A DNA stretch of 64,000 bases from NCBI RefSeq assembly GCF_000702205.1, contig NZ_JNKW01000010.1:37606-101605 (forward strand), in the 5' to 3' direction. The position numbers were made by a program, and so were the translations under genes. Below are positions 2,388-16,900 of the stretch, piece by piece; position 1 is the first letter of the stretch, and the number at the start of each line of letters is the position of its first letter. Source of the stretch: Lachnospira multipara LB2003. GTDB taxonomy: Bacteria > Bacillota > Clostridia > Lachnospirales > Lachnospiraceae. The notes under the pieces were generated by a model, which made no database searches, was not told the DNA's origin, and saw only the letters and a program-made list of their open reading frames with translations.

Positions 2388-2729
2388 TTATATTTTTTCT
2401 TTAGTATGAATTAACATCAAGGAGTCAATCATCTCTAATCCTTCATTATTATCTTCTTTTATCAAGCTTTGAGTTTCCTCTGTATCTAATAATTCACATG
2501 TTTCATTATCTTCATTTTCAATTTTTCTATAAGATAAATCTAAAACTTTTTTATGATTAATCTCATTATTATGTCTCATTAATTCAATTGTTTTTCTAGC
2601 ATTTCGTCCATTTAAATCTCCTATTAAATCAGGAATTTTAAAGACAACAAAAACAATTATAGTTAAAACAAAAAAGACAATTGCCAAAAGAAAAAATACT
2701 AGAGAAAATCTGTTTAAAATATCTGCCAT
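2388..2729 (-). CDS. Small single-span membrane protein of the kinase operon
   Basis: This 113-residue protein has one strong membrane segment (about residues 8-31, rich in F, L, I and V). A charged cytoplasmic or exposed tail follows, with many D, E and N residues. No family is recognised. Its ATG shares one base with the stop codon of the kinase gene (TAATG), so translation is probably coupled. A GGAG ribosome binding site sits about 12 bases upstream. The tail has several Thr residues next to acidic residues (for example ETCELLDTEETQS), which could be kinase substrates; that is inference only. A role as a small accessory subunit between the kinase and the Ig-like surface protein is suggested by position alone. 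Confidence 0.6.
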   Translation of the reverse strand: MADILNRFSLVFFLLAIVFFVLTIIVFVVFKIPDLIGDLNGRNARKTIELMRHNNEINHKKVLDLSYRKIENEDNETCELLDTEETQSLIKEDNNEGLEMIDSLMLIHTKEKI

Positions 2730-4414
2730 TAGTTTCTTTTCTCCTCTACACTTACATAACTCCTGTTAATTGCATCTAAAAACTCGTCTTGTTTACTTAG
2801 AATCTCATCTTGTAACCTAAGTGATTGTTCTTTTAAAACAGTAAGATTTTTACTTCTTTCATAGATTCTGTTATAAAGACTAATAACACTTTCCCTAGGA
2901 ACATTGACCTGAGCCATAAGATTTCTTTGATCATATAAAAACATAACCACGCCATTATAAAGTGTTAATTGATCATATGCATTAGAATCTGTCACTAACT
3001 CTATTGCCTCATCTATACTTGAAAACAATTCATCATAATTTTCCTTAGATGCCTCTTCAACACTAGTATTATTTAAAATGAATTTCTTATAAAATGAACA
3101 TATTAAATAATAACTATCTGAAATTGTCTGTTTATCAAAACTAGTTTGATTCTTATAATTAGCCTCAAAAAATGGATATGCCTTTTGAACTCTAGTTGCA
3201 AAACTATAACCTCCATTATTATTATCTGTATAGTAATTAAAGTAGAGCATTCCAATCATATAATTTAATCTTGATACTTCCTTAGACCTAATATCTAACT
3301 TATCTTTATTGGCATTATAAATAGCTAAAAATTCATCGTTTTGCTCTTTACTAAACCTTCCTTCATCTTGATAAGCTTCAACTAGTTTTATATATGCATC
3401 AACCCTAGATGGATAGATCTTAATTGCAGCTTTGTAATTACTAATCTTATCCTCAAAAGAACTTGCTGTTGATGTTGAAACTAATAAATCATAATCGCCA
3501 TTGTTAATATTTCTAGCACTTATCTTAGTAACAAGTCCTAAAAGCAAGAAAACAACTGTAGCAAGACATAATGATATAAACAATCTTAACTTTCTTTTTT
3601 GCTTTCTTTTATAATCCTTAGTAATTAACTCTGGGTGTTCTAAATCATATAAAAGATCATTACAGTTTTGATATCTATGTTCGGGTGCTGGAGAAACACA
3701 CTTGTCAATAATTAACTCCATACCTTCTGATATCTCAGGATTCCACATCCTTACAGGAGCATAACTTTCACCCCTTCTTGGATCTATTCCTGTAAGTAAA
3801 TGATGCATTGTCATTCCTAGAGCATAAATATCTGATCTAGCATCAGTTTGACCACTATACTGCTCTGGTGGTGCATAACCCTTAGTTCCTAAAACCGTAG
3901 TATCAGATAAACTTTCTTCCTTATACTCTCTAGCAATACCAAAATCTATGATTTTAATGTTACCTTCCGGTTTTAACATAACATTAGCCGGTTTCATGTC
4001 TCTATATATAATAGGCGGTTTTTGTTGGTGAAGATATGATAAAGCATCACAAAGCTGTTTTGCCCACTCTAACACTAACTCTTCTGATTGTGGCCCCTGT
4101 TCTAATAAAATCTTATCTAGTGATTCACCTTCGATATAATCCATTACAACATAAATAGTCACTCCATTATCAATAATATCTACAATTCTAGGCAGTGCAG
4201 GATGATCTAATCTCTTCATAAGATTAGCTTCCGCAAGCAAACTATTAACAACAATTTCATCATTTTTCCCAGTTTTACTTTTTCGGATTTCTTTAATTGC
4301 CCACTGCTTATTAAGATGAGTATCCATTGCTAAATAAACGACAGACATTCCGCCCTTACCTATCTGTGTAAGAATTTTATATTTTCCATCAATAACAGAA
4401 CCAATATTAGCCAC
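2729..4414 (-). CDS. Transmembrane serine/threonine protein kinase (Hanks type, no PASTA domains)
   Basis: This 561-residue protein starts at GTG (4414), seven bases after AGGAGGTG. The N-terminal kinase domain (about 10-260) is complete: glycine loop GKGGMS (19-24), catalytic lysine in AIKEI (K41), YRDMKPANVM catalytic loop (D139), DFG (157-159) and the activation-segment end GTKGYAPPEQ (176-185). All key residues are intact, so it should be active. One membrane span follows at about 278-297. The outer part (300-561) has no PASTA repeats. Instead it looks helical and TPR-like, with a first pair of helices around YKAAIKIYPSRVDAY. It therefore differs from PrkC/PknB peptidoglycan sensors and probably senses a protein or another ligand. 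It sits between the PP2C phosphatase and the small membrane gene, with 11 bases separating it from the phosphatase stop. Confidence 0.9.
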   Translation of the reverse strand: MANIGSVIDGKYKILTQIGKGGMSVVYLAMDTHLNKQWAIKEIRKSKTGKNDEIVVNSLLAEANLMKRLDHPALPRIVDIIDNGVTIYVVMDYIEGESLDKILLEQGPQSEELVLEWAKQLCDALSYLHQQKPPIIYRDMKPANVMLKPEGNIKIIDFGIAREYKEESLSDTTVLGTKGYAPPEQYSGQTDARSDIYALGMTMHHLLTGIDPRRGESYAPVRMWNPEISEGMELIIDKCVSPAPEHRYQNCNDLLYDLEHPELITKDYKRKQKRKLRLFISLCLATVVFLLLGLVTKISARNINNGDYDLLVSTSTASSFEDKISNYKAAIKIYPSRVDAYIKLVEAYQDEGRFSKEQNDEFLAIYNANKDKLDIRSKEVSRLNYMIGMLYFNYYTDNNNGGYSFATRVQKAYPFFEANYKNQTSFDKQTISDSYYLICSFYKKFILNNTSVEEASKENYDELFSSIDEAIELVTDSNAYDQLTLYNGVVMFLYDQRNLMAQVNVPRESVISLYNRIYERSKNLTVLKEQSLRLQDEILSKQDEFLDAINRSYVSVEEKRN

Positions 4415-4425
4415 AATCTCACCTC

Positions 4426-5187
4426 CTATTCTGCCTTAATAAGAATCGCTGAAATATTATCTTTTTCCATACGCTTCTTAACTAATTCTATTAAGTACTC
4501 TAGTCTATTAGCCATTTCCTTCTTGCCTTTTAATTCTTCAATTGCCAAATATTCTAGCATCTCTGCCTCAGTTAATTCGTGTCTAAAACCATCTGAGCAA
4601 AGTAGATATACACCTGATTTAATTATTCCAGTTTTTAGCTCTGCCCTTAGATTCTTAGATGCACCCACACACTGTAAAAGCATATTTCTTCGCTTATCTT
4701 TTTTTGCTTCACTAGGGCTTAACCTTCCGCTTCTTATTTCTCTTTCAATAAAAGTATGGTCAGTAGTTAACTGTTTTATATAACTATCTATATAATATAA
4801 ACGCGTATCACCTACATGAACCAATAAATAGTCATTATCAACAAACAAAATTCCTGTAAATGTTGTTCCCATAGAAATAGATTTTTCCTTAGAATAACTA
4901 AGCATTTGCTTATTTATTTCCTCAAGCATATCTTCCCATTCTTTAGCAATAGCATTAAGATTTAAATCATTTAATCTGAATGTTATTTTTTTGTCAAACC
5001 ATTCACAAAATTTTTTTACAACAGCTCCACTTGCTAGCTCTCCTTTTTCTAGTCCGCCCATGCCATCACATATGATAGCCATTACTATCTCTGCACCTTT
5101 ATATCTAGCATGTTTATATAATAAGCTGTCTTGATTTACCTTTTTTATTATTCCCTTATCTGTTTTAGCTACAACTCTAAAATTCAT
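4426..5187 (-). CDS. PP2C-family serine/threonine phosphatase
   Basis: This 253-residue protein should remove phosphate from Ser/Thr targets of the neighbouring kinase. PP2C metal-site motifs are visible in order: KGIIKKVNQDS (D20), ICDGMGG (D41), HVGDTRLYY (about 125-132), TTDHTF (141-146), LLCSDG (D199) and KDNIS (D243). Length and motif order match stand-alone soluble PP2C proteins (PrpC/Stp type). No signal peptide or membrane span is seen, so it acts in the cytoplasm. It lies between the FHA gene and the kinase with short gaps of 15 and 11 bases, the usual arrangement of a kinase-phosphatase pair in one transcript. Confidence 0.92.
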   Translation of the reverse strand: MNFRVVAKTDKGIIKKVNQDSLLYKHARYKGAEIVMAIICDGMGGLEKGELASGAVVKKFCEWFDKKITFRLNDLNLNAIAKEWEDMLEEINKQMLSYSKEKSISMGTTFTGILFVDNDYLLVHVGDTRLYYIDSYIKQLTTDHTFIEREIRSGRLSPSEAKKDKRRNMLLQCVGASKNLRAELKTGIIKSGVYLLCSDGFRHELTEAEMLEYLAIEELKGKKEMANRLEYLIELVKKRMEKDNISAILIKAE

Positions 5188-5202: not shown

Positions 5203-6294
5203 TTAAACTCTAAATTCAAATTCTTCATTAGCTAATTTTATTATATCCATATCATGAATTTCGTATTCTTCATTAGCTGCTATTAAATTACCATTCACAT
5301 ATGTTCCATTTTTAGAGCCTAAATCTAAAATATAATAGTTTCCTGCTCTAGTAATAATCTGAGCATGCTTTCTACTAACCATATTATTATCTAAAACACA
5401 ATAATCAGAATAACTTCTTTCTTTACCAATTCTAAAATCTTCCTTATTAATTTCAAATACGTTATCTGTGCTGATTCTTCGCATCTTAGCATAGTTGACT
5501 CTAACTTCTTTTAAATCTAATAAACCTGTAACCTCTTCATCTATTAATAAGCCTGTAGCCTCTTCATCATAATCATTAAGAAGTCCTGTGGCTTCATCAT
5601 CTAATAAGCCTGTTAACTCTTCATAATTATCTAATTGGCTAATTTTTTTTCCATTTTCTTCTTTTCCTTCGTAATGTTCATAATAATGCTTAGGCTTATC
5701 TGTCATAAAACCACTCTGCCCTGCATTATGTCTCTTTATTGTATTAACAATAGTTCTATCTTCCCTCGTTATGAAATTTTCAATTTTACTGATATCAAAT
5801 GCCGATAAAGAATTAAGATAATAAACAAATCTTGATATATAATCCATATCTTTTTCATGCATAGGTTTTGCTGCATAAATGATCTGTTCTAGAAATCCCA
5901 TCAGATTTACTGCTTTATCTCCACCATCAAGCGGTAAGTAAATAAACTGCATCTCTTTTGTAGTTTCATTAATATAAACATGTCGAATATCCCAAACCAC
6001 GCAAGACAAACTTAAAGCATTTGCTTTTATCTTCTCGCTAATATCTAAAACTTGTTCTATCATAAAGAAGAAATCATGTTTTGATACTTCTTGCTTTAAG
6101 CGTTCTTGTAAGCTTATAGCAACAGGTCCGTAATACTCTATTGATCTTTTCTTAATTATCTTAATCTTTAAAAGACCTCTTAGATTTTTTCTTGAAAAGA
6201 AATCTAATGATACATCATTAATTCTTTCAGAAAAGGACAAAGAAGCTTTTAAATTAAGCTGACAGTTTCTAGTTTTAGCTTTAAACTTTGCCAT
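5203..6294 (-). CDS. FHA-domain protein with four TGLL phospho-threonine-like repeats
   Basis: The start is placed at the ATG at 6294, where GGAGAG lies four bases upstream; the longer frame to 6345 has no such site. The protein is 363 residues. Residues about 1-200 form a globular region like the N-terminal domain paired with FHA in many clostridial proteins (DUF6382-like, recalled with moderate certainty). A charged linker carries four E-x-x-TGLL or E-x-TGLL copies with Thr at 228, 236, 247 and 256. The FHA domain follows (about 287-358) with the RIG, SRKH and NGT motifs that bind phospho-threonine. FHA domains often prefer pThr with an aliphatic residue at +3, which TGLL supplies. By analogy with GarA/OdhI, the kinase may phosphorylate these Thr residues and the FHA domain may then bind them in cis or trans. 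It is the first gene after the invertible promoter. Confidence 0.85.
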   Translation of the reverse strand: MAKFKAKTRNCQLNLKASLSFSERINDVSLDFFSRKNLRGLLKIKIIKKRSIEYYGPVAISLQERLKQEVSKHDFFFMIEQVLDISEKIKANALSLSCVVWDIRHVYINETTKEMQFIYLPLDGGDKAVNLMGFLEQIIYAAKPMHEKDMDYISRFVYYLNSLSAFDISKIENFITREDRTIVNTIKRHNAGQSGFMTDKPKHYYEHYEGKEENGKKISQLDNYEELTGLLDDEATGLLNDYDEEATGLLIDEEVTGLLDLKEVRVNYAKMRRISTDNVFEINKEDFRIGKERSYSDYCVLDNNMVSRKHAQIITRAGNYYILDLGSKNGTYVNGNLIAANEEYEIHDMDIIKLANEEFEFRV

Positions 6295-6355
6295 ATTACT
6301 CTCCGTTTTAATATGTTTAATCTTTAATATAAACATATATATCATAATTATCTAT

Positions 6356-6387
6356 AATCTTGCGTAGAACTATCAGTTCTTAACCAA
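6356..6387. repeat. Left inverted repeat of the invertible cassette
   Basis: Exact reverse complement of 7483-7514 over 32 bases. The core AGAACT-ATC-AGTTCT is itself a dyad with 6-bp arms and a 3-bp centre, like a pair of recombinase half-sites. It lies in the 5' leader of the FHA operon, between the promoter and the FHA start. Confidence 0.95.
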
Positions 6388-6406
6388 TGAGCACACAAGT
6401 GTTTGT

Positions 6407-6435
6407 AGTTTACCAAACTAAAATATATATGTCAA
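6407..6435 (-). promoter_or_regulatory. Consensus promoter inside the invertible segment, reading toward the FHA operon
   Basis: On the minus strand, TTGACA (6435-6430) and TAAACT (6412-6407) are separated by exactly 17 bases. Transcription should begin near 6400, run through the left inverted repeat (6387-6356) and reach the FHA start at 6294. A dyad, TAGTTTACCAAACTA (6406-6420), covers the -10 box and could be an operator or an accessory recombinase site. Confidence 0.75.
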
Positions 6436-6521
6436 CTAATGAAATGAAAGATTATTAAATGTTTGGATTTGGAATTATGTAGAATTTCATACAAATATCA
6501 TATAAATACATAGGAGGTCAT

Positions 6522-7490
6522 ATGAACGAAGAATTAATACAATACAAAAGAGAAATTACAATAAAGGATTTATTGGAACAATGGCTAAGGAATAAGGAAT
6601 ATCAGCTTAAAAAATCTACAATTCTAAAATATAAAAACATAATTAATCTACATATAATCCCTGAGATTGGTGATGTTAAATTAGAAGAAATAACATTTAA
6701 TACTATCAACCAATTTCTGTATAATAAAAGTCTTACTGGCAGAATAAATGATAACAAAAACCTAAGTAAATCCTATATAAAAACCATGGCTATCATTCTT
6801 TCATCAGCTATAAACTATGCAATTCTTTATGGTTTAACTAAACCTCTTGTAGGAAAAATTATTAAACCCTCCATAACAAACTCCAAGATAATAGCTTTAA
6901 CTAAAGAAGAACAATATAAATTAGAAAAGCATTTATCTAAATGTAAAGATAATACCGAATTAGCCATTATAATAGCTCTTAATACAGGTTTAAGAATAGG
7001 CGAGATTTGCGCATTAAGTTGGGCTGATATAGACTTAAATAAGGATATTCTTCATGTAAAAAATTCTGTCATTCGTATAGAAGATTCTTCAAATAATAAA
7101 AGCTCTAAAACTAAACTAATTATTGATCTGCCTAAATCTAAGCATTCTATTCGAGATATTCCTATAACAAGTAAATTAAAAGAGTATCTATTAAAATATT
7201 ACGTTCACAACAAATACGATTATGTCTTAACAAATTCTAATGAATTTTTAAGCCCAAGAACTTTAGAATATAGATTTCATAGCTTCTTAAAAAAATCTGG
7301 AATTAAAAACTTTAATTTCCATATTCTTAGACATACTTTTGCCACAAGATGTATAGAATGTGATGTTGATATTAAGACATTAAGTGAAATAATGGGCCAT
7401 GCCAGTGTGAATATTACGCTTAATAATTATGTGCATCCTTCTTTTGAAAATAAAAGACATCAGCTTGAAAAGCTGGATAATTTTGGTTAA
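6522..7490 (+). CDS. Tyrosine recombinase (phage-integrase family), probable DNA invertase
   Basis: This 322-residue protein starts at an ATG with AGGAGG four bases upstream. It has an N-terminal SAM-like core-binding region (about 12-110) and a C-terminal catalytic domain. The full set of active residues is present: R158 in NTGLRIGE, K205 in LPKSKHSIR, H267 and R270 in HILRH, H293 in MGHAS and nucleophile Y303 in NNYVHP. Unlike integrases of mobile islands, it has no excisionase, cargo or tRNA target beside it. Instead it lies alone between perfect 32-bp inverted repeats, and its last codons form part of the right repeat. The likely job is inversion of its own segment and hence switching of the promoter at 6407-6435. 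It could still be a relict integrase that happens to be flanked by repeats. Confidence 0.9.
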   Translation: MNEELIQYKREITIKDLLEQWLRNKEYQLKKSTILKYKNIINLHIIPEIGDVKLEEITFNTINQFLYNKSLTGRINDNKNLSKSYIKTMAIILSSAINYAILYGLTKPLVGKIIKPSITNSKIIALTKEEQYKLEKHLSKCKDNTELAIIIALNTGLRIGEICALSWADIDLNKDILHVKNSVIRIEDSSNNKSSKTKLIIDLPKSKHSIRDIPITSKLKEYLLKYYVHNKYDYVLTNSNEFLSPRTLEYRFHSFLKKSGIKNFNFHILRHTFATRCIECDVDIKTLSEIMGHASVNITLNNYVHPSFENKRHQLEKLDNFG

Positions 7491-7514
7491 GAACTGATAG
7501 TTCTACGCAAGATT
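7483..7514. repeat. Right inverted repeat of the invertible cassette
   Basis: Exact reverse complement of 6356-6387. It includes the last two bases of a Phe codon, the Gly codon and the stop of the recombinase, so the coding end is regenerated in either orientation. Outside the 32 bp the two flanks match only loosely. Confidence 0.95.
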
Positions 7515-7545: not shown

Positions 7546-7580
7546 AAAAACGCCTTCATCCCTTAGGATGAAGGCGTTTT
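7546..7580. terminator. Bidirectional terminator outside the invertible cassette
   Basis: A perfect 10-bp stem, CGCCTTCATC/GATGAAGGCG, with a 6-base loop has A-tract and T-tract flanks. It ends metY transcripts from the right and recombinase transcripts from the left. It would also block the cassette promoter in the inverted state. Confidence 0.88.
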
Positions 7581-7639: not shown

Positions 7640-8923
7640 TTAGATCTGATCAAGTGCCTGAGCTAAGTCTGCAATTAAGTCCTTCTTATCTTCAAGACCA
7701 CATGACATTCTAACTAAACCTGCTGGAATTCCTGCAGCCTTAAGCTGTTCATCATTCATCTGACGATGTGTTGATGTAGCTGGGTTTAAACAGCATGTTC
7801 TAGCATCTGCTACATGAGTTTCAATAGCAGCAAGCTTTAAGCTCTTCATAAACTTCTGAGCTGCATCTCTACCGCCTGCAAGTTCAAATGAAACAACACC
7901 ACAACCACCATTTGGAAGGTACTTCTGTGCTAAATCATAGTACTTATCTGACTTAAGACCTGAGTAATTTACCTTAGTTACCTTAGGATGAGCCTCTAAG
8001 AATTCAGCAACTGCCTGTCCATTCTCAACGTGTCTTGGCATTCTTACATGAAGTGATTCAAGACCAAGGTTTAAGATGTATGCATTCTGTGGAGACTGGA
8101 TTGAACCGAAATCTCTCATAAGCTGTGCTGTTGCCTTAGTAATAAAGGCACCTTCCTTACCAAACTTCTCGGCATAAGTAATACCATGATAAGATTCATC
8201 TGGTGTACAAAGTCCAGGGAATTTATCTGCATGTGCCATCCAGTCAAATTTACCAGAATCTACAATACAACCACCTACAGCTGCACCATGTCCATCCATA
8301 TACTTAGTTGTTGAATGAGTTACAATATCTGCACCCCACTCAATTGGTCTACAGTTTACTGGTGTTGGGAATGTATTATCTACAATTAGTGGTACTCCAT
8401 GTTCATGAGCTACCTTTGCAAACCTCTCAATATCAAGCACTGTAAGGGCAGGATTTGCAATTGTCTCACCAAATACCGCTCTTGTATTATCCTTAAATGC
8501 TGCATTAAGCTCTTCTTCTGTAGCTGTTGGTTCTACAAATGTTACATCAATACCCATTTTTTTCATTGTAACTGCGATTAAATTAAATGTACCACCATAA
8601 ATTGATGATGATGCTACAATATGGCTTCCACATTCGCAGATATTAAAAAGAGCAAAAAAGTTAGCAGCCTGACCTGATGATGTAAGCATTGCTGCACTTC
8701 CACCTTCTAAATCAGCTATCTTAGCAGCAACATAGTCATTAGTAGGATTCTGTAATCTTGTATAAAAATAGCCTTCAGCCTCTAAGTCAAAGAGCTTACC
8801 CATATCCTCACTTGTATCATACTTAAATGTTGTTGACTGTACTATAGGAATCTGTCTTGGTTCACCATTCTTAGGTCTATAGCCAGCCTGTACACAGCTA
8901 GTGTTAATTGAATAATTTTCCAT
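7640..8923 (-). CDS. metY: O-acetylhomoserine sulfhydrylase (PLP-dependent, Cys/Met metabolism family)
   Basis: The product should make homocysteine from O-acetyl-L-homoserine and sulfide (or cysteine from O-acetylserine) in the cytoplasm, using PLP. The start is set at the ATG at 8923 (427 residues), because GGAGG lies just before it; the longer frame would begin at a TTG overlapping that site. Visible family motifs include YTRLQNPTND, TSSGQAAN, DNTFPTP and the PLP-binding lysine in HSTTKYMDGHG (K207). The SxxRGCG-like end RMSCGLED is present. Length fits MetY (about 425-430), which is longer than MetB/MetC. No SAM riboswitch is visible upstream; a 15-bp hairpin lies in the leader instead. 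Confidence 0.93.
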   Translation of the reverse strand: MENYSINTSCVQAGYRPKNGEPRQIPIVQSTTFKYDTSEDMGKLFDLEAEGYFYTRLQNPTNDYVAAKIADLEGGSAAMLTSSGQAANFFALFNICECGSHIVASSSIYGGTFNLIAVTMKKMGIDVTFVEPTATEEELNAAFKDNTRAVFGETIANPALTVLDIERFAKVAHEHGVPLIVDNTFPTPVNCRPIEWGADIVTHSTTKYMDGHGAAVGGCIVDSGKFDWMAHADKFPGLCTPDESYHGITYAEKFGKEGAFITKATAQLMRDFGSIQSPQNAYILNLGLESLHVRMPRHVENGQAVAEFLEAHPKVTKVNYSGLKSDKYYDLAQKYLPNGGCGVVSFELAGGRDAAQKFMKSLKLAAIETHVADARTCCLNPATSTHRQMNDEQLKAAGIPAGLVRMSCGLEDKKDLIADLAQALDQI

Positions 8924-8953
8924 TTTCGCCTCCAAAAAAGTTACTATAGGAAG

Positions 8954-15594: not shown

Positions 15595-16242
15595 TTATCT
15601 TTCTAAAATATCTTCCACGTCACAGCCTAGTGCCCTTGCTAAGTTTACTACCGTCGCCACACTTGCCTTATTAATATCATTTTGACGTTGTTCGTATAAT
15701 TGAATCATTCTATAAGTTACTTCCGATTCATTAGATAGCTGCCTTTGAGAAAGTCCCCTTGCTTTTCTTATCTTAGCAAGATTCGTTACCATTTCCTTCT
15801 TCTTAGAATTAATAATTTTATAGGCTTCCTTTACAAAAAGAGATATATCTTCATCATGTAGTCCGTCGTACAAAGACAGTATCTTCTCTATTGTAAGCCC
15901 TCTGCGGTAAATGTCAATAAATCTTAGGCCAGAATACCATTGAAAATAACAAAGTGCCCATCCACACCAATACTCTGGTTCATCAAACTCCTTATTTCTA
16001 GGGCTTATTGCCTGAATCTCTTTTTTCTCTTTTATTAAAACCAAATCACACAATTCAACTCCAGACATACCAGTTATAACTTTAGGATTACCCATCTCAA
16101 ATTGAGTGGCTACACCTGTCTCCATAAAACTAGTAAAAAAATCATCTCCATTAAGCTTAAGATCAAACATAGCATAATCCATCATATCACCTAGGTTACA
16201 CATAGCATCATCCAAGTAAGAATCGTTGTACGAATGCATCAT
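15595..16242 (-). CDS. Predicted antitoxin/regulator with C-terminal XRE-type HTH
   Basis: The start is set at the ATG at 16242, eight bases after GGGGTGG, rather than the longer frame to 16272; this gives 215 residues. Residues about 5-55 form an acidic helical domain seen in partners of DUF3990 genes (YLDDAMCNLGDMMDYAM). A middle region has YWCGWALCYFQW. Residues about 155-215 form a lambda-repressor-like HTH: KARGLSQRQLSNESEVTYRMIQLYEQ, followed by a VATVVNLARALGC helix. It overlaps the end of the DUF3990 gene by 35 bases. The likely role is neutralising the upstream ADP-ribosyltransferase-like protein and binding DNA to autoregulate; this is inference from pairing. Confidence 0.8.
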   Translation of the reverse strand: MMHSYNDSYLDDAMCNLGDMMDYAMFDLKLNGDDFFTSFMETGVATQFEMGNPKVITGMSGVELCDLVLIKEKKEIQAISPRNKEFDEPEYWCGWALCYFQWYSGLRFIDIYRRGLTIEKILSLYDGLHDEDISLFVKEAYKIINSKKKEMVTNLAKIRKARGLSQRQLSNESEVTYRMIQLYEQRQNDINKASVATVVNLARALGCDVEDILER

Positions 16243-16900
16243 CGTCAACCCACCCCGCTTCACAAATATCATTAATATAGAAATTTTCTATGTCCGTCTC
16301 TTTAGCAATTTCTTCCATAAATGAGTTTCTAAATTTCATATCTCTTGCAAGCTTTTTAGGATAATAAATCTCCTTATTTGCAAATGTAGCTTTGCAAAAC
16401 TCCATTAATTCATATGCTTTCTTAGTTCTTAATACAACCTGAAGTCCATTTTTCCCAAGCCTCATAGCTTTATAAAAAATATCAATTGATATTTCGTTAT
16501 TTAAAAAGGCATTAGTTATGGCAAAATACGAATCATCCGCTCTAAAGCCCTTAACAATATCGCACTTCCAATAGTCCACATAAAAATTATCCAATATATA
16601 TTTTCTAGCTCTAATAGCATCCTCTCCATTAATTCGAAACTGCCTGTTTTCAAGCACAATTGCCATCCAGTTTAGAATATTATAATCGCCATTATTAAGA
16701 TCTAGAAAATTAATACCTTCACCCTTAATCTCTATGTCAAACTCACTTACAAAGCCATGGGTCTTATTTTGGCAAGCCCATTCCTTAGTTACTTCCTTTT
16801 CTAGGGAACAATAAAATCCTTGTCCAAAATCATTAAAAATAAAGCCCTCTCCCCATACAGGCTTAGTAACAATTCTTGGGGCACCATGATAAAGTTTCAT
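16208..16900 (-). CDS. DUF3990 protein, ADP-ribosyltransferase-like putative toxin
   Basis: This 230-residue protein carries the DUF3990 pattern. It starts with LYHGA, then FNDFGQGFYCS with KEVTKEWACQ, then the block YWKCDIVKGFRADDSYFAITNAF, and LQVVLRTKKAYELMEF near the end. DUF3990 belongs to the ADP-ribosyl superfamily, where the HG and GFY motifs form the NAD pocket. Such genes commonly sit before an HTH partner, as here. It may be the toxin of a toxin-antitoxin or phage-defence pair that modifies a protein or nucleic acid. No signal peptide is seen, so it acts inside the cell. Its target is unknown. Confidence 0.8.
   Translation of the reverse strand: MKLYHGAPRIVTKPVWGEGFIFNDFGQGFYCSLEKEVTKEWACQNKTHGFVSEFDIEIKGEGINFLDLNNGDYNILNWMAIVLENRQFRINGEDAIRARKYILDNFYVDYWKCDIVKGFRADDSYFAITNAFLNNEISIDIFYKAMRLGKNGLQVVLRTKKAYELMEFCKATFANKEIYYPKKLARDMKFRNSFMEEIAKETDIENFYINDICEAGWVDDDAFVQRFLLG

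What the first reader, a model, noticed from the sequence alone, without database searches (positions are those of the whole stretch)
6356..7514. Self-encoded invertible promoter switch controlling a Ser/Thr-kinase and surface-protein operon
Seen directly: a perfect 32-bp inverted repeat flanks a tyrosine recombinase gene; a consensus promoter (TTGACA, 17 bases, TAAACT) inside the segment points out toward the FHA-PP2C-kinase-Ig operon; and a strong terminator lies just outside the other repeat. The recombinase stop codon is inside the right repeat, so inversion leaves the gene intact. Inference: the cassette flips itself and toggles the operon ON (present orientation) or OFF (promoter firing into the terminator), in the manner of fim-type switches. 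Phase-variable control of a phospho-signalling module by a recombinase inside its own invertible segment is unusual, and I do not recall this combination being described.
Basis: partly seen in the sequence, partly recalled or inferred. Interest (0 to 1): 0.93.

Follow-up and report, generated by a model that had tools for sequence, protein, structure and literature searches.

The report
Self-flipping switch for type VII secretion
In this likely Lachnospiraceae genome a 1.16-kb cassette, made of a recombinase gene and an outward-facing promoter-like sequence between two perfect inverted repeats, sits directly before a type VII secretion operon and is predicted to flip itself and so turn that secretion machine on or off; relatives carry the same kind of cassette in both orientations before like operons or before pilus operons.

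Summary
In detail: a perfect 32-bp inverted repeat (6356-6387 / 7483-7514) encloses a tyrosine recombinase gene and an outward TTGACA-17-TAAACT promoter-like sequence; a strong hairpin lies beyond the far repeat. The operon it faces is a type VII secretion (T7SSb) locus: FHA, PP2C, Ser/Thr kinase, Ig-like surface protein, second FHA, ParA-like ATPase, EssC, WXG100. It is not a one-off. Of 108 usable loci (focal included), 67 have the recombinase enclosed by inverted repeats, with an outward promoter far above chance and sites that look like tyrosine-recombinase crossover sites (conserved half-sites; centre free between cassettes, identical within 62 of 66 pairs). The focal enzyme lies in a clade whose cassettes mostly sit before FHA-PP2C-kinase(-T7SS) or Tad pilus operons, in both orientations. 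A near-identical pair of relatives with a sister anatomy (inverton beside the recombinase) shows an inversion directly. Inversion in this strain, recombinase activity and transcription remain untested. Verdict: new variant of a known kind. Invertible promoters, and recombinases inside them (Hin), are known; a self-contained switch on T7SS or Tad machines was not in the papers searched.

The parts
6356..6387 (+). left recombination site (outer half TTGCGTAGAA, centre, inner half TTCTTAACCAA)
   Evidence: perfect inverted repeat; only two copies in genome; matches site family
6407..6435 (-). outward promoter-like sequence TTGACA-17-TAAACT with TG before the -10, facing the T7SS operon (present orientation = ON, predicted)
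   Evidence: family-wide outward promoter signal
6522..7490 (+). tyrosine recombinase, 322 aa, lacking about 50 N-terminal residues that most of its 370-400 aa relatives have (arm-binding role of that stretch recalled); predicted inverter of its own segment
   Evidence: PF00589, PF14659; R158, K205, H267, R270, H293, Y303 invariant in alignments of 31 and 18 sequences (catalytic role recalled)
7483..7514 (-). right recombination site; holds the recombinase stop codon
7547..7580 (.). hairpin, bidirectional terminator-like; predicted dead end for the promoter in the inverted state and likely 3' end of the Cys/Met-metabolism gene at 7640-8935 (-)
   Evidence: I4; -24.2 kcal/mol, z -10.7
5203..6294 (-). 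FHA/DUF6382 protein, first gene of the operon (ORF runs to 6345; likely start 6294)
   Evidence: start from ribosome-binding site read
4426..5187 (-). PP2C-type phosphatase
2729..4414 (-). Ser/Thr protein kinase, with a hydrophobic stretch after the kinase domain (by eye)
   Evidence: Pkinase E 7e-50
2388..2729 (-). 113-aa protein with a hydrophobic N-terminus (by eye), no Pfam match; homologues in the operons of L076, L079, L082, L101
1..2358 (-). start of the 1327-aa Ig-like surface protein; the operon goes on beyond the window (contig C9) with FHA-2, ParA-like ATPase, EssC 1496 aa, WXG100 and others
   Evidence: TIGR03928 1044 bits, cut-off 778; WXG100 E 2e-20

Best explanation
A 1,159-bp cassette that carries a tyrosine recombinase gene and an outward promoter-like sequence between two perfect 32-bp inverted repeats is predicted to invert itself, so that the promoter would drive the adjacent type VII secretion operon in the present orientation and would fire into a terminator-like hairpin in the other. 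Shown: the anatomy; the T7SSb operon; a family of like cassettes with sites of the tyrosine-recombinase type; both orientations before homologous operons in different genomes; one direct inversion between close relatives, in the sister anatomy. Inferred: that the enclosed recombinase is the enzyme, that this strain flips, that the promoter is the operon's main one. OFF may be low rather than zero, since after inversion the recombinase gene would read toward the operon with only a weak hairpin near its end.
For: Perfect, genome-unique repeat around the gene. Of 108 usable loci, 67 (focal included) have repeats scoring 16 or more around the recombinase; the best of one resampled control per locus scored 15. 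Outward promoter score 11.1 on average against 8.9 inward and 8.9 in shuffles; above its own 95% shuffle level in 45 of 64 outward and 1 of 64 inward (3 of 67 segments too short to test). Sites: half-sites conserved between cassettes, centre nearly free (0.02-0.41 bit) yet identical within 62 of 66 pairs; 22 of 4290 between cassettes. Focal clade of 15, SH-aLRT 99. Of 17 cassettes of this type, 8 stand before FHA-PP2C-kinase operons (6 ON, 2 OFF), 7 before Tad operons (2 ON, 5 OFF), 1 before a DUF6273 protein, 1 beside an FHA remnant. EssC follows on the same contig in 5 of those 8. Hairpin with T-run scoring 20 or more on the dead-end side in 7 of 14, operon side 0 of 14, random stretches 17 of 280. 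L102/L111: recombinase DNA 97% and near flank 99% alike, inner 183 bp 24% forward but 93% reverse-complemented.
Against: No inverted junction was seen in this strain; only one assembly, no reads. 41 of the 108 usable loci show no enclosing repeat at the threshold. An earlier control with four resamplings per locus reached 16 once, for the AT-rich L007, whose real score is 20. The cassette is not conserved in its genus: of 21 other genomes only G016 has a recombinase match better than 1e-30, and FHA matches there were partial. The -10 TAAACT is imperfect, and a 9-of-12 promoter-like site lies outside the left repeat, at 6354-6326. The direct inversion is for the adjacent anatomy and a recombinase 37-38% identical to the focal one. 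7 of 14 clade cassettes had no hairpin of that score on the dead-end side. Over all 67 cassettes the automatic reading of flanking genes gives 13 ON, 20 OFF, 19 with outgoing genes on both sides, 7 with none and 8 at contig edges; of the 14 clade members then in hand it called L075, L079, L080 and L084 'both' and L081 and L083 'edge', and their states are my reading from the side on which the named operon lies (for L075 and L081).
Confidence: 0.85

Rival explanations
1. A locked relic: the cassette once inverted, but in this strain it is fixed ON and acts as a plain promoter plus a leftover recombinase.
For: Only one orientation is in the assembly; a homologue with a large internal deletion exists (P0003).
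Against: The two 32-bp sites are perfect and the recombinase is intact with the conserved residues; decay would be expected to erode them.
Confidence: 0.1
2. A small mobile element: the repeats are its ends and the recombinase its integrase, and the promoter effect is incidental.
For: The nearest solved structures are integrases named only 'Int protein' (6EN0, 6EMY, E 2e-15; that these are from Tn1549 is recalled); sister cassettes stand before different operons (L082 FHA/T7SS, L084 Tad; support 98).
Against: One copy in the genome; place before the first gene of the operon in 8 FHA-type and 7 Tad-type cases; outward promoter and far-side hairpin. No empty site was examined.
Confidence: 0.08
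3. The recombinase acts mainly on other sites elsewhere, and the operon is run from a promoter outside the segment.
For: 9-of-12 promoter-like match outside, at 6354-6326.
Against: No other copy of the site in the genome at up to 3 mismatches; the scan's total (15 found, 10.8 +/- 3.6 expected) is near chance, so that match means little.
Confidence: 0.05

Closest known systems
Hin flagellar switch of Salmonella
   Same: recombinase within the invertible segment, 966 bp (PMC5903667 passages); promoter inside as well (recalled)
   Different: Hin is a serine recombinase (PMC11868660 passage); here a tyrosine recombinase, another site type, and a T7SS target
fim-type switches (FimB/FimE, fimS)
   Same: tyrosine recombinase, inverted repeats, promoter inversion, surface machine as target
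   Different: the E. coli segment is about 300 bp and contains only a promoter (PMC5903667 passage); here the recombinase gene is enclosed
Putative 844-bp segment of Providencia stuartii enclosing a recombinase ORF near fimbriae
   Same: a recombinase ORF inside a segment with a read signature of inversion (PMC5903667 passage)
   Different: 14-bp imperfect repeats, fimbrial locus, a gammaproteobacterium; no family described in the passages read
Inverton group 139 with tyrosine invertase group 35 (PhaseFinderDC)
   Same: mostly clostridial invertons near tyrosine recombinases, flipping seen in reads (PMC11892184 passages); by its coordinates the named example has 26-bp arms and a 257-bp span, like L102/L111
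   Different: the passages place the invertase near the inverton; its motif was not available here, so identity with this site family is untested; 'type VII' is not in that text
C. difficile RecV switches (cwpV, flagellar)
   Same: clostridial tyrosine recombinase phase switches (PMC5903667 passages)
   Different: 154-230 bp segments; one recombinase, RecV, acts on several of them

Membership tests
Invertible promoter (inverton) | inverted repeats enclosing an outward promoter | tested here: met
   by sequence; promoter activity not tested
Invertible promoter (inverton) | both orientations in one population | not testable with these tools
   no reads; one assembly of this species reached
Invertible promoter (inverton) | both orientations among relatives | tested here: met
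   homologous operons with opposite cassettes; L102/L111
Invertible promoter (inverton) | expression follows orientation | not testable with these tools
   needs RNA data
fim-type switch | tyrosine recombinase | tested here: met
fim-type switch | short segment that contains only a promoter | tested here: not met
   the recombinase gene lies inside a 1,159-bp segment
Hin-type switch | recombinase inside the segment | tested here: met
Hin-type switch | serine recombinase | tested here: not met
   PF00589 tyrosine family
T7SSb locus | EssC-type FtsK ATPase | tested here: met
   TIGR03928 1044 bits, cut-off 778
T7SSb locus | WXG100 substrate | tested here: met
   PF06013 E 2e-20, TIGR03930 above cut-off
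Inverton group 139 | its published repeat motif | not tested
   the motif is in a supplement; no supplement look-ups were allowed

The most novel reading that the evidence does not exclude
Autonomous, portable phase switches: one gene, one promoter and two sites form a self-contained flipping cassette that has spread through Clostridia and been plugged in before whole surface machines (type VII secretion, Tad pili), so that single cells gamble on owning the entire machine; the same recombinase family also makes the classical adjacent switch.
Probability: 0.6. Interest if true: 0.87.

Novelty: new variant of a known kind. Interest (0 to 1): 0.8.

Why it matters
It would make type VII secretion, a machine known in other Firmicutes as a weapon against competitors and hosts (recalled), a phase-variable bet-hedging trait in gut-type Clostridia, and it gives a recognisable sequence signature (recombinase plus self-flanking TTCGCAGAGT-n5-ACTCTGCGAA-like sites) with which such switches can be sought in any clostridial genome. 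Because enzyme, sites and promoter come in 1.1-1.8 kb, the hypothesis can be tested on a plasmid, and the cassettes are natural parts for one-piece switches in anaerobes.

Tried and rejected
Searching the viral collection for the 32-bp site found nothing. Flanking-gene orientation over all 67 cassettes is only modestly informative: 7 of 59 with both flanks have no outgoing gene where 25% is expected (binomial 0.01). The label 'enclosed by repeats' is clustered on the tree but is not one clade: 20 changes, shuffled mean 33. L022 was left out of the site counts because its repeat is 166 nt long. L009 duplicates L091 and L086 has too little upstream sequence; both were dropped before counting. 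Of the 15 regions fetched, out of 58 places listed, 11 have enclosing repeats of 16 or more and 4 do not (L213, L215, L216, L219); only L210-L212 were added to the clade count, on score, site and operon, and were not placed in the tree. L222 is the same contig as L087 and L216 holds L011. L213, the next best match, showed no repeat and no target operon, was not counted, and its clade membership was not tested. L078 lies inside the focal clade on the tree but has no enclosing repeat, and is not among the 17. L223 looked like a T7SS but its FtsK protein scores far below the EssC cut-off, so it was not counted. L088's operon runs off its contig, L080 had no EssC-grade match and L212 was not tested for EssC. 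Paper searches on T7SS, Tad, Lachnospiraceae and enclosed recombinases gave no paper on such a switch in the listings seen; several listings were capped (for example 15 of 56 and 15 of 54), and subscription papers and preprints are not held.

Full report
Observation. The window holds a perfect 32-bp inverted repeat at 6356-6387 and 7483-7514. It occurs nowhere else in the genome at up to 3 mismatches. Inside lie a tyrosine recombinase gene, 6522-7490 (+), and on the other strand a promoter-like TTGACA-17-TAAACT at 6435-6407 that faces out across the left repeat. Beyond the right repeat stands a 15-bp-stem hairpin, 7547-7580, -24.2 kcal/mol and z -10.7. Turning the segment round in silico leaves the 322-aa gene unchanged and points the promoter at that hairpin. 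The recombinase has the integrase domains PF00589 and PF14659; R158, K205, H267, R270, H293 and Y303 are invariant in alignments of 31 and 18 sequences, the second with the window's own protein; I recall these as the catalytic residues of this class.

The target. The operon to the left is more than a kinase module. On the same contig, all on the minus strand with gaps of at most 87 bp as far as the gene after WXG100, follow FHA, PP2C, Ser/Thr kinase, a 113-aa protein, a 1327-aa Ig-like surface protein, a second FHA protein, a ParA-like ATPase, an 81-aa ORF, a 1496-aa EssC, a 97-aa WXG100 protein and further genes. EssC passes NCBI's equivalog cut-off for T7SS EssC (1044 bits against 778) and the WXG100 protein its own. 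So the switch stands before a type VII secretion locus. The first gene's likely start is ATG 6294, after a GGAGAG site (read).

Not a one-off. I collected 110 loci: the focal one, 29 others from a search of 195 genomes and the best 80 of 584 in GTDB contigs. After one duplicate and one locus with too little upstream sequence were dropped, 108 remained; 67 of them, focal included, have the recombinase enclosed by inverted repeats scoring 16 or more and 41 do not; one resampled control per locus never passed 15, though in an earlier run with four resamplings one control reached 16. The outward promoter between repeat and gene start scores 11.1 on average against 8.9 for the other direction and 8.9 for shuffles; 45 of 64 segments long enough to test beat their own 95% shuffle level outward, 1 of 64 inward. 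Within its own genus the cassette is rare: of 21 other genomes only G016 has a recombinase match better than 1e-30.

Site signature. Aligned on their dyad, the sites read roughly TTCGCAGAGT-n5-ACTCTGCGAA. Between cassettes the half-sites are conserved and the central bases nearly free (0.02 to 0.41 bit), but the five central bases are identical in the two sites of the same cassette in 62 of 66 cases, against 22 of 4290 comparisons between cassettes (L022 left out). Finding the repeats by similarity favours identity, so the within-pair figure is partly built in; the freedom of the centre between cassettes is not. That is what a tyrosine recombinase crossover site needs (established knowledge).

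The focal clade. On a tree of 109 recombinases the focal one falls in a clade of 15 with SH-aLRT 99, of which 14 are self-enclosed, most with TTGCGTAGAAC- or TTCGTAGAAC-like sites; the fifteenth, L078, has no enclosing repeat. Three more cassettes like them came from 397 genomes of the family. Of these 17, 8 stand before FHA-PP2C-kinase operons, 7 before Tad pilus operons, one before a 2333-aa DUF6273 protein and one beside an FHA remnant. EssC follows on the same contig and strand in five of the eight: the focal genome, L076, L079, L082 and L101; in the other three it was cut off (L088), not found (L080) or not sought (L212). In G016 the closest recombinase (46% identical) stands before a Tad operon that itself ends in FHA, PP2C and kinase genes.

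Both orientations. Relative to the operon, FHA-type cassettes are 6 ON (L001, L079, L080, L082, L088, L101) and 2 OFF (L076, L212); Tad-type are 2 ON (L083, L210) and 5 OFF (L007, L077, L084, L085, L211). These states follow the side on which the named operon lies; the automatic reading of nearest genes called L075, L079, L080 and L084 'both' and L081 and L083 'edge'. The flanking proteins match end for end with the cassette turned round, for example L001 against L076 and L077 against L083. A hairpin with a T-run, score 20 or more, lies on the dead-end side in 7 of 14 clade cassettes, on the operon side in 0 of 14 (one of score 16 there, L084), and in 17 of 280 random stretches.

A direct inversion. 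Some relatives carry the sister anatomy, a short inverton right after the recombinase gene: L102, L111, L126, L144, L150. L102 and L111, two Mediterraneibacter genomes by their record titles, have recombinase genes 97% alike, 99% over the next 500 bp beyond the inverton, the same two arms, and an inner 183 bp that matches 24% forward and 93% reverse-complemented, all without gaps; a promoter-like TTGAAT-17-TATACT (9 of 12) points at a NusG-family gene in L102 and away from it in L111. An equally scoring 9-of-12 match lies on the other strand, so the ON and OFF labels there are tentative, but the inversion is plain. It shows that sites of this kind invert in nature; that the neighbouring enzyme does it is inferred.

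Doubts. No reads of this strain could be examined, so flipping here is inferred. In the inverted state the recombinase gene would read toward the T7SS operon with only a weak hairpin near its end (7460-7476), so OFF may be leaky; G016 has a hairpin-like stretch after its recombinase gene, read by eye. A promoter-like match outside the left repeat on the plus strand (6330-6358) could drive the recombinase in the present orientation only, which would bias the switch; this is untested. The flanks of the wider family are mixed: 13 ON, 20 OFF, 19 both sides, 7 neither, 8 contig edge.

Literature. Passages of PMC5903667 give Hin as a recombinase inside its segment and report an 844-bp segment in Providencia stuartii that encloses a recombinase ORF. 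Passages of PMC11892184 link a mostly clostridial inverton group (139) to a nearby tyrosine invertase group (35), with flipping seen in reads. Neither text holds 'type VII', nor does the review PMC11868660, of which I saw passages. The remaining papers I saw as search listings only. So the kind is known; the self-contained tyrosine cassette as a clostridial family, and its use on T7SS and Tad machines, was not found in these searches, several of whose listings were capped.

Noticed in passing
L102:10968-11204 and L111:10968-11204: Short inverton beside a related recombinase, in opposite orientations in two Mediterraneibacter genomes, before a NusG-family gene.
   Followed up: yes
window 6330-6358 (+): Promoter-like TAAACA-17-TATAAT that begins outside the left repeat and points at the recombinase only in the present orientation; could couple switch state to recombinase level.
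   Followed up: no
L069 (G016:C12:64001-83500): Tad pilus operon ending in FHA, PP2C and kinase genes behind an OFF-oriented cassette of the same clade: the phospho-module is shared by two different machines.
   Followed up: partly
L140:5591-16929: A cassette of another recombinase clade in OFF orientation, 268 bp before a kinase gene; some 5 kb further on the same strand lies an EssC-like gene cut by the end of the fetched stretch.
   Followed up: partly
L078:3532-5173: Tandem sites forming a 54-bp inverted repeat 1.5 kb apart near a recombinase of the focal clade that has no enclosing repeat of its own.
   Followed up: no
L081:2231-3757: Clade cassette near an 88-aa FHA remnant, apparently an operon lost by deletion.
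   Followed up: partly
protein P0003: A close homologue of the focal recombinase (95% over the matched 57%) that lacks an internal stretch in frame, possibly a locked switch.
   Followed up: no
window 15595-16900 (-): DUF3990 protein overlapping a gene with an HTH domain; looks like a toxin-antitoxin type pair (recalled, not tested).
   Followed up: partly
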